A stretch of DNA of 33,552 nucleotides, taken from positions 1 to 33,552 of the forward strand of contig CANHDN010000012.1 in the NCBI GenBank assembly GCA_947459415.1, in the 5' to 3' direction. The notes beneath the pieces were generated by a model. The model was not told the origin of the DNA. It was given only the letters and a program-made list of their open reading frames with translations, and did no database searches. This DNA comes from Bacteroidota bacterium. Its GTDB lineage: Bacteria; Bacteroidota; Bacteroidia; UKL13-3. Made by a program: the position numbers and the translations under genes. This document shows, one piece after another, positions 20,690 through 22,674 of this stretch; position 1 is the stretch's first letter, and every line of letters begins with the position of its first letter.

Positions 20690-20772
20690 CAAAAAATCTA
20701 AGTTTCAAAAAATTTCTTCCTTAGATGGTGGCTACTTTGAGTCATACTTGCAAAAAAATGACAGACAGCCTA

Positions 20773-20801
20773 TTGAAAATTAATAATTTGTATTAATTTT
20801 G
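20773..20801 (+). promoter_or_regulatory. Bacteroidota-type intergenic promoter
   Basis: TTG (20773-20775), 18 bp, TAATTTTG (20794-20801), then GC-rich CGCCCGAT; no downstream ORF on the + strand. Confidence 0.65.
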
Positions 20802-20806
20802 CGCCC

Positions 20807-21012
20807 GATTTAGGAATAGGGCCAGTTTTAGCGGAAACACAATAATAAAATAAAAAATTATTATTTTCTATAAAACTGCATGAATTTCAGAACTTGATTT
20901 TCATGATAATCAATAAAATCCTGATTATAAATCAATTAAAATAGAAAAAGTTTGGTGTTTGTTTATATTAAAGGCTGCAGAGAATTGAATCCCTAATTTT
21001 CTGCGGCTTTTT
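20807..21012 (+). ncRNA. Candidate structured non-coding RNA (~205 nt)
   Basis: Own promoter, nested stem CAGTTTTA/TAAAACTG (20823-20830/20871-20878) enclosing AATAATAA/TTATTATT, a 14 bp bulged hairpin at 20894-20935, terminator at 20974-21012, and no meaningful ORF. Confidence 0.6.
20974..21012 (+). terminator. Intrinsic terminator (+ strand)
   Basis: GCTGCAGAGAATT (20974-20986), loop GAATCCCT, AATTTTCTGCGGC (20995-21007), TTTTT. The two non-Watson-Crick pairs are G-U wobbles only in the + strand RNA. Confidence 0.8.
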
Positions 21013-21015
21013 AAT

Positions 21016-22674
21016 TTAGGGCTTTTTCTTTTTAAAATAGGTATCTAAGAATGAAACGTCTTGAGCATTCAAACACATTTCTTTTGTTAGGCCCCCTTTT
21101 CTGGCTACCTCTGTTCCAAAAAACATATCATAAAAGCCTTCTACTTCATGTGCATCTGGGTTAATGCTAATCATTACGCCTTTGTTTATAGCATAATCTA
21201 GGTATCGCCAGTCTATGTCTAAGCGGTATGGGTTTGCATTCAGTTCTAGAATTACTCCATTAGCAGCGCAGGCGTCGATGATTTTGTGATGGTTTATTGG
21301 GTAACCTTCACGCATTAATAATAACCTTCCTGTTGGATGACCTAGAATAGTGGTATAAGGGTTTTCTATGGCTTTTATGAGTCTACTCATTGCTTTGTCT
21401 TCAGTCATTTTAAGAACACTGTGCACTGAGGCAACTACATAATCAAATTCTTGAAGGATACTGTTATCGTAATCTAAATTTCCATCATATAATATATCCG
21501 ATTCTATTCCTGAGAATATCTTAAACTTACCCGCATATTTTTGGTTTAGCTTAGCAATCTCAACAAGTTGTTGAGCCACTCTTTCTTCAGATAAACCATT
21601 GGCATAAAATGCACTTTTACTGTGATCGGCCATGCCTAAATATTCGTACCCTTGTTTTACGCAAAAATCTGCCATGGTTTCTATGGTATGAATACCATCG
21701 CTGTAGGTAGAGTGATTATGAAGCGGTCCTTTTAAATCTGTATATTCAATTAAAACAGGTAATGCATGAGCAATGGCACGTTCAATTTCACCTCTGTCTT
21801 CTCGCATCTCTGGGTGCACATAAGACATATTTGCCGCTTCATAAATTTCTTTCTCATTCTCATAGTTCTTTCGGTCTGAACCTATTCTTTGCAGCACTTT
21901 TTCTGCATGCAATTGGCTCGACCCAAACTGAAACAAATGATAAGCAAACTCATTGGCATTACAAACCAATATCTTAAAGGTAAATTCTTCCATTTTGAAG
22001 CTATTTTCTGAATAAGGAAACTCAAAAAATGATTCAAATTCTTCTGCAAAAAACAGCGGATCCATCGTGCCTACTATCATTTCAACACAGCTAATGGTTT
22101 CCATTTTACGATAAAATTCCCCTGAAAAAGAGGCATGTTCTACAGATTCAAAGCGTTCTAGTTGGGTTAATAAATCGATGGCGCTTGGATAAATTTTGGC
22201 ATAATGAAATTGACCAGCACTGGCAAACATAAACTCAATTTGTTTAATGATTGCTTCCTGTGTTTTTAAACCAAATCCCTTGTATTGTGCTAATCTATTT
22301 TCTTTGCAAGCGTATAAAAGTTCTCCAATACTTTCAATTTGCATTTCTTTCCAAATAATGGCTACCTTTTTGGGTCCAATGCCTTTAATTCTCATGATTT
22401 GACGAACGCCTTCGGGTGTTGCTTCAATTAATTGTAGCAATTCTGGGAAAGTATTGGTTTCAAAAATTTGTACTAGTTTTAGTGCAATACTTTTACCAAT
22501 CCCCTCCACGTTTTCAAGTTCTTGCAGTGTTTTACCCTCCAGTGGGTCTGCTATTTTATCAATGCGAAATGAGGCATTTGCAAAAGATTTTATTTTAAAA
22601 GGATTTTCGCCATGTAATTCGCTTAAATCAGCATAGGCTTTAAATATATCTGCAATATCAGAATTGGTCATCAT
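21016..22674 (-). CDS. polX: PolX-family protein (HhH + degenerate Pol-beta-like domain + PHP domain)
   Basis: N-terminal HhH 'LENVEGIGKSIALKLV' and 'IMRIKGIGPKKVAIIW'; PHP motifs 'LHNHSTYSDG', 'MADHS', 'GIESDI', 'ASVHS', 'GHPTG', 'NPDAH'. Confidence 0.92.
   Translation of the reverse strand: MMTNSDIADIFKAYADLSELHGENPFKIKSFANASFRIDKIADPLEGKTLQELENVEGIGKSIALKLVQIFETNTFPELLQLIEATPEGVRQIMRIKGIGPKKVAIIWKEMQIESIGELLYACKENRLAQYKGFGLKTQEAIIKQIEFMFASAGQFHYAKIYPSAIDLLTQLERFESVEHASFSGEFYRKMETISCVEMIVGTMDPLFFAEEFESFFEFPYSENSFKMEEFTFKILVCNANEFAYHLFQFGSSQLHAEKVLQRIGSDRKNYENEKEIYEAANMSYVHPEMREDRGEIERAIAHALPVLIEYTDLKGPLHNHSTYSDGIHTIETMADFCVKQGYEYLGMADHSKSAFYANGLSEERVAQQLVEIAKLNQKYAGKFKIFSGIESDILYDGNLDYDNSILQEFDYVVASVHSVLKMTEDKAMSRLIKAIENPYTTILGHPTGRLLLMREGYPINHHKIIDACAANGVILELNANPYRLDIDWRYLDYAINKGVMISINPDAHEVEGFYDMFFGTEVARKGGLTKEMCLNAQDVSFLDTYFKKKKP

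What the first reader, a model, noticed from the sequence alone, without database searches (positions are those of the whole stretch)
20773..21012. Stand-alone structured RNA candidate between porU2 and polX
A 326 bp gap carries a full transcription unit with no ORF. It has a -33 TTG, 18 bp, -7 TAATTTTG; a nested hairpin (20823-20878); a 14 bp hairpin TTGATTT-[TCATG]-ATAATCA / TGATTATAAATCAA with a 5-nt bulge (20894-20935); and a terminator whose two imperfect pairs are G-U wobbles only on the + strand. On the minus strand they become A-C mismatches, and the T tract is also on the + side, so the unit is directional and not simply the polX terminator. The length (~205 nt) is in the range of 6S RNA, but I cannot assign a family.
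Basis: partly seen in the sequence, partly recalled or inferred. Interest (0 to 1): 0.7.

Follow-up and report, generated by a model that had tools for sequence, protein, structure and literature searches.

The report
Orphan RNA left by lost gene
This stretch looks like a small stand-alone RNA gene: it is the start and the stop signal of a bioplastic-synthesis gene (phaE) joined after the gene itself was deleted, and both ends are still being preserved by evolution, which suggests the leftover RNA does a job of its own.

Summary
It could not see where the unit came from. In 11 of 19 genomes of the genus, the same promoter with its upstream box drives phaE (PHA synthase subunit E), and the same 3' block and terminator sit between phaE and phaC; the usual order is porU2-phaE-phaC-polX. 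The window's genome and its sister species (G014) lack phaE and phaC. They carry the two phaE untranslated regions joined by about 80 drifting bases. Trees nest the pair among phaEC carriers, so the unit is derived by deletion. Its ends are still constrained: the 3' block is 31/31 identical and the promoter 38/42, while fourfold sites in porU2 are 35% identical. That matches pairs that still have phaE. Five other members that lost phaEC kept nothing here. Best reading: a ~205-nt small RNA gene made when a coding sequence was removed from between its own UTRs, probably keeping a 3'UTR-derived regulatory activity. Transcription and targets are untested. Only two species carry it.

The parts
20690..21015 (+). 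Whole gap between porU2 (ends 20689) and polX (convergent, stop at 21016); holds the remnant transcription unit
   Evidence: about 80% identical to sister G014
20713..20741 (+). Conserved upstream box TTTCTTCCTTAGATRGTGGC...TTTGAG, probable regulator-binding site of the former phaE promoter
   Evidence: alignment; at this promoter in all six genomes searched, only copy in five of them
20773..20801 (+). Promoter: -33 TTG, 18-bp spacer, -7 TAATTTTG (primary sigma factor type of Bacteroidota)
   Evidence: near-invariant upstream of phaE in ten relatives and in G014
20802..20812 (+). Inferred transcription start region GCGCCCGATTT, near-invariant in all 12 aligned genomes
20806..20858 (+). 5' part of the RNA, former 5'UTR of phaE; ends where the phaE ATG stands in relatives
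20841..20865 (+). Hairpin AATAATAA/TTATTATT; the 5' arm is the old phaE leader, the 3' arm stands where the start codon was; identical in the sister species
20866..20943 (+). Drifting middle (about 54% identical to the sister, yet homologous); not recognisable as phaE
20948..20980 (+). Conserved 3' block AAGTTTGGTGTTTGTTTATATTAAAGGCTGCAG; in relatives it starts at or a few bases after the phaE stop codon
   Evidence: 31/31 identical to the sister from 20950
20970..21012 (+). Intrinsic terminator (12-bp lower stem, U tract), directional through two G-U pairs; in relatives it is the phaE-phaC intergenic terminator

Best explanation
The element is a stand-alone small RNA gene of about 205 nt, formed in the common ancestor of two related Bacteroidota species when the phaE coding sequence and phaC were deleted. 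The deletion left phaE's own promoter, upstream box and 5'UTR joined to phaE's 3' block and terminator. SHOWN by sequence comparison: homology of both ends to the phaE untranslated regions, loss of phaE and phaC from the locus, the direction of the change on the tree, and continued strong constraint on promoter and 3' block after the loss. INFERRED: the promoter still fires and makes a terminated ~205-nt RNA. INFERRED, less certain: the RNA works in trans through the conserved block AAGUUUGGUGUUUGUUUAUAUUA before the terminator, by base pairing or by binding a protein, an activity that the 3' end of phaE mRNA already had in the ancestor.
For: (1) Window 20709-20858 matches just upstream of phaE and 20947-21012 just after the phaE stop, about 1.3 kb apart in relatives. 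(2) PhaE and PhaC identified by Pfam, found in 11 of 19 genus genomes and absent from G000 and G014. (3) Synteny porU2-phaE-phaC-polX in G002, G003, G013, G015, G018. (4) Trees: G000 and G014 are sisters (polX 89/87; porU2 99/99), nested with phaEC carriers G001 and G006. (5) Single origin: the drifted middle segments of the two species are homologous (0 of 2000 shuffles). (6) Constraint after loss: fourfold sites 35% identical, promoter 38/42, 3' block 31/31, the same as in phaEC-bearing pairs of similar distance. (7) The RNA folds more stably than shuffles on + only, and the aligned pair does too (0 of 500).
Against: Only two genomes carry it, both draft assemblies. No transcript data. No conserved target: only one complementary site is shared by the two species, and it lies inside a coding region. 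The consensus structure of the 5' domain is weak (alifold -5.5, 22 of 500 shuffles as good). Five relatives lost everything at this locus, so the RNA is dispensable in the genus.
Confidence: 0.6

Rival explanations
1. Fossil only: promoter and terminator of a deleted gene that happen to survive, still transcribed or not, with no present function.
For: The deletion origin is clear. The middle is decaying. Other PHA-losing relatives kept nothing.
Against: Fourfold sites are near saturation (35% identity) while promoter and 3' block are 90-100% identical in the pair, and the homologous drifted middle indicates that the deletion predates their split. A fossil would have decayed throughout.
Confidence: 0.17
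2. Boundary element: the hairpin is kept as the terminator that separates the convergent genes porU2 and polX, and the rest is incidental.
For: It lies exactly between convergent genes and is a good + strand terminator.
Against: It does not explain conservation of the promoter, the upstream box and the 20 or so bases before the hairpin. The hairpin is weak on the polX side (-9.8 kcal/mol). Five relatives manage with porU2-polX gaps of about 20-80 nt without it.
Confidence: 0.13
3. Antisense control of polX: transcripts that read through the former phaE-phaC terminator run antisense into polX.
For: In the ancestor some transcription presumably passed this terminator to reach phaC; polX now lies convergent just behind it.
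Against: No evidence of read-through; the 3' block was conserved equally when polX was not next to it.
Confidence: 0.06
4. A 6S-like or other known housekeeping RNA.
For: Length about 205 nt only.
Against: No Rfam hit at gathering score and only chance-level hits below it; derived from phaE UTRs; ends in an intrinsic terminator hairpin rather than being one long rod.
Confidence: 0.01

Closest known systems
3'UTR-derived small RNAs (e.g. among the 21 UTR-derived candidates reported in Bacteroides thetaiotaomicron, PMC7366714)
   Same: The conserved block sits directly after a stop codon and ends in the mRNA's intrinsic terminator in the phaE-bearing relatives
   Different: Here the coding sequence is gone, so the 3' part is driven directly by the old mRNA promoter; no processing has been shown
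High-confidence intergenic sRNAs of Bacteroidota such as GibS (PMC7366714)
   Same: Own promoter of the -33 / TANNTTTG type, no ORF, intrinsic terminator, AT-rich
   Different: No sequence similarity was tested or found; the origin from a deleted gene is documented here
phaE-phaC operon leader and intergenic terminator in this family of Bacteroidota
   Same: Direct homologue of both ends
   Different: No phaE or phaC; the two untranslated regions are joined
6S RNA (RF00013)
   Same: Similar length
   Different: No model match, other architecture, other origin

Membership tests
Intergenic small RNA with own promoter and intrinsic terminator | Own promoter upstream | tested here: met
   TTG-N18-TAATTTTG at 20773-20801, near-invariant in 12 genomes
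Intergenic small RNA with own promoter and intrinsic terminator | Intrinsic terminator on the same strand | tested here: met
   the simple pattern scan did not list it
Intergenic small RNA with own promoter and intrinsic terminator | No conserved protein-coding frame | tested here: met
Intergenic small RNA with own promoter and intrinsic terminator | Detected transcript of the predicted length | not testable with these tools
   no RNA-seq held
3'UTR-derived small RNA (ancestral state) | Conserved 3'UTR block sharing the mRNA terminator | tested here: met
3'UTR-derived small RNA (ancestral state) | Processing site or internal start giving a separate short RNA | not testable with these tools
   needs RNA-seq
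3'UTR-derived small RNA (ancestral state) | Conserved base-pairing target | tested here: inconclusive
   one shared complementary site, inside a coding region; method weak
6S RNA (RF00013) | Match to the covariance model | tested here: not met
6S RNA (RF00013) | Long rod closed by 5' and 3' ends with a central bubble | tested here: not met
   separate 3' terminator hairpin and a multibranch 5' domain

The most novel reading that the evidence does not exclude
A route to new small RNA genes: deletion of a coding sequence from between its own untranslated regions releases a regulatory RNA that was already encoded in the mRNA's 3' end, and selection keeps this RNA, with the original promoter and its control, long after the metabolic pathway is gone.
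Probability: 0.42. Interest if true: 0.68.

Novelty: new variant of a known kind. Interest (0 to 1): 0.52.

Why it matters
How bacterial small RNA genes arise is poorly documented. Here the before state (phaE mRNA in 11 relatives), the after state (orphan RNA in two sister species) and the alternative outcome (complete loss in others) are all visible at one locus, with constraint measurable on each part. If the orphan RNA is functional, the phaE 3' end in the relatives should act as a regulatory RNA too, which is directly testable and would link carbon-storage mRNA to regulation in Bacteroidota.

Tried and rejected
Rfam at gathering and at relaxed threshold: nothing.

Other copies of the 3' module: the covariance-model hits below about 41 bits that I inspected are ordinary terminators or the G025 modules; the seed motif with one mismatch is no more frequent than its backwards control.

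Middle segment as a phaE or phaC remnant: no score above shuffles.

Target search with the complement of the 3' block in G000 and G014: chance-level counts, one shared site inside a coding region.

Small-protein reading: no conserved frame.

Two-sequence structure test of the 5' domain: each RNA folds well, but the shared structure is weak. A closing stem 20806-20812 with 20926-20932 plus a second helix has one double compensatory change, three single-sided changes that keep pairing, and four pairs formed only in the sister.

Literature: no paper found that describes this element; the searches were few and limited to open papers.

Full report
Observation. The 326-bp gap between porU2 (ends 20689) and the convergent polX (stop at 21016) carries a promoter of the Bacteroidota primary sigma type, TTG-N18-TAATTTTG at 20773-20801, no coding frame of 20 aa or more on the + strand within the RNA, and a terminator at 20970-21012. 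The terminator is strong on the + strand (-23.0 kcal/mol for its module) and weak on the - strand (-9.8), because two of its pairs are G-U. The RNA 20806-21014 folds below all 200 shuffles on + (z -4.4) and less clearly on - (z -1.6). Rfam has no match.

Origin. A DNA search of relatives gave the key result. In genus members the 5' part of the gap (20709-20858) and the 3' part (20947-21012) both match, but about 1.3 kb apart. The sequence between them is one long frame, phaE (PF09712, PHA synthase subunit E), followed by phaC. The 5' match ends at the phaE start codon and the 3' match begins at the phaE stop. The window's promoter is therefore the phaE promoter, and its terminator is the phaE-phaC intergenic terminator. 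PhaE and PhaC are found in 11 of 19 genus genomes and are absent from the window's genome G000 and from G014, both estimated over 96% complete. In G002, G003, G013, G015 and G018 phaEC stands between porU2 and polX. Trees of PolX and PorU2 place G000 and G014 as sisters among phaEC carriers G001 and G006. The orphan form is thus derived by loss.

One deletion, long ago. The segments between the two conserved ends are only about 54% identical in G000 and G014, yet are clearly homologous (0 of 2000 shuffles reach the global score). A single ancestral event is the simplest reading. The middle is not recognisable as phaE. Where the phaE start codon stood there is now an arm that pairs with the old leader (AATAATAA/TTATTATT).

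Constraint. Fourfold degenerate sites of porU2 are 35% identical between G000 and G014, near saturation. The promoter is 38/42 and the 3' block from GTTTGG to GCAG is 31/31 identical. Pairs that still have phaE at similar distance show the same figures: G001/G006 41/42 and 29/31, G003/G013 38/42 and 28/31. Loss of phaE and phaC has not visibly relaxed selection on these parts. The upstream box is at this promoter in all six genomes searched and is the only copy in five of them. Selection on promoter, box and 3' block together points to selection on a regulated transcript.

Function. The 3' block AAGTTTRGKGTTTGTTTATATTA stands between the phaE stop and the terminator in the genus, and T-rich stretches stand in the same place in other genera of the family (by eye). 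That position, and its survival without phaE, fit a 3'UTR-derived small RNA that has become a stand-alone gene. UTR-derived and intergenic small RNAs with such promoters and terminators are known in Bacteroides (PMC7366714). I could not find a target: complementary sites are at chance level and the only shared one lies in a coding region. A common 5' structure is not proven with two sequences, though a closing stem shows one double compensatory change.

Rivals. A pure fossil does not explain unequal decay. A boundary terminator does not explain the promoter, the box or the block before the hairpin, and five relatives live with porU2-polX gaps of about 20-80 nt. Antisense control of polX is possible but without support. 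6S RNA is excluded by the models and by the origin.

Verdict. A stand-alone RNA unit is supported. Its history as the joined untranslated regions of a deleted PHA gene is well supported (my estimate about 0.95). Its present function as a small RNA is likely but unproven (about 0.6).

Noticed in passing
phaE-phaC spacers, e.g. L038:2197-2263, L046:2118-2192, and after phaE in L250, L264, L266: A directional intrinsic terminator between phaE and phaC is present throughout the genus and in several other genera of the family, which suggests built-in higher expression of phaE than of phaC.
   Followed up: partly
19 genomes of the genus: Members without phaE and phaC have genomes of at most 2.8 Mb, while carriers have 3.2-5.5 Mb (one carrier, 84% complete, has 2.8 Mb): loss of carbon storage goes with small genomes.
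   Followed up: no
L165:1124-1210 and L165:1277-1410 (G025:C34): Two tandem RNA-like modules in another genus, the first right after a tryptophanase-like gene: hairpin GCTRCAGGAGTAAGYAGC, then AAAGTTTAGGTTTAGTTTAG, then a strong terminator. The second stands alone; the block resembles the one studied here.
   Followed up: partly
L050:682-717, L052:1716-1775, and phaE promoters in L248-L269: The start-site sequence TANNTTTGCGCCCG(A)TTT recurs at unrelated promoters, e.g. before rpsM in another family; it may be a general feature of strong promoters in this class.
   Followed up: no
L204 (CAMDHZ010000023.1): A MAG of this genus is labelled Chitinophaga pinensis in the public record, which looks like a misnomer.
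   Followed up: no
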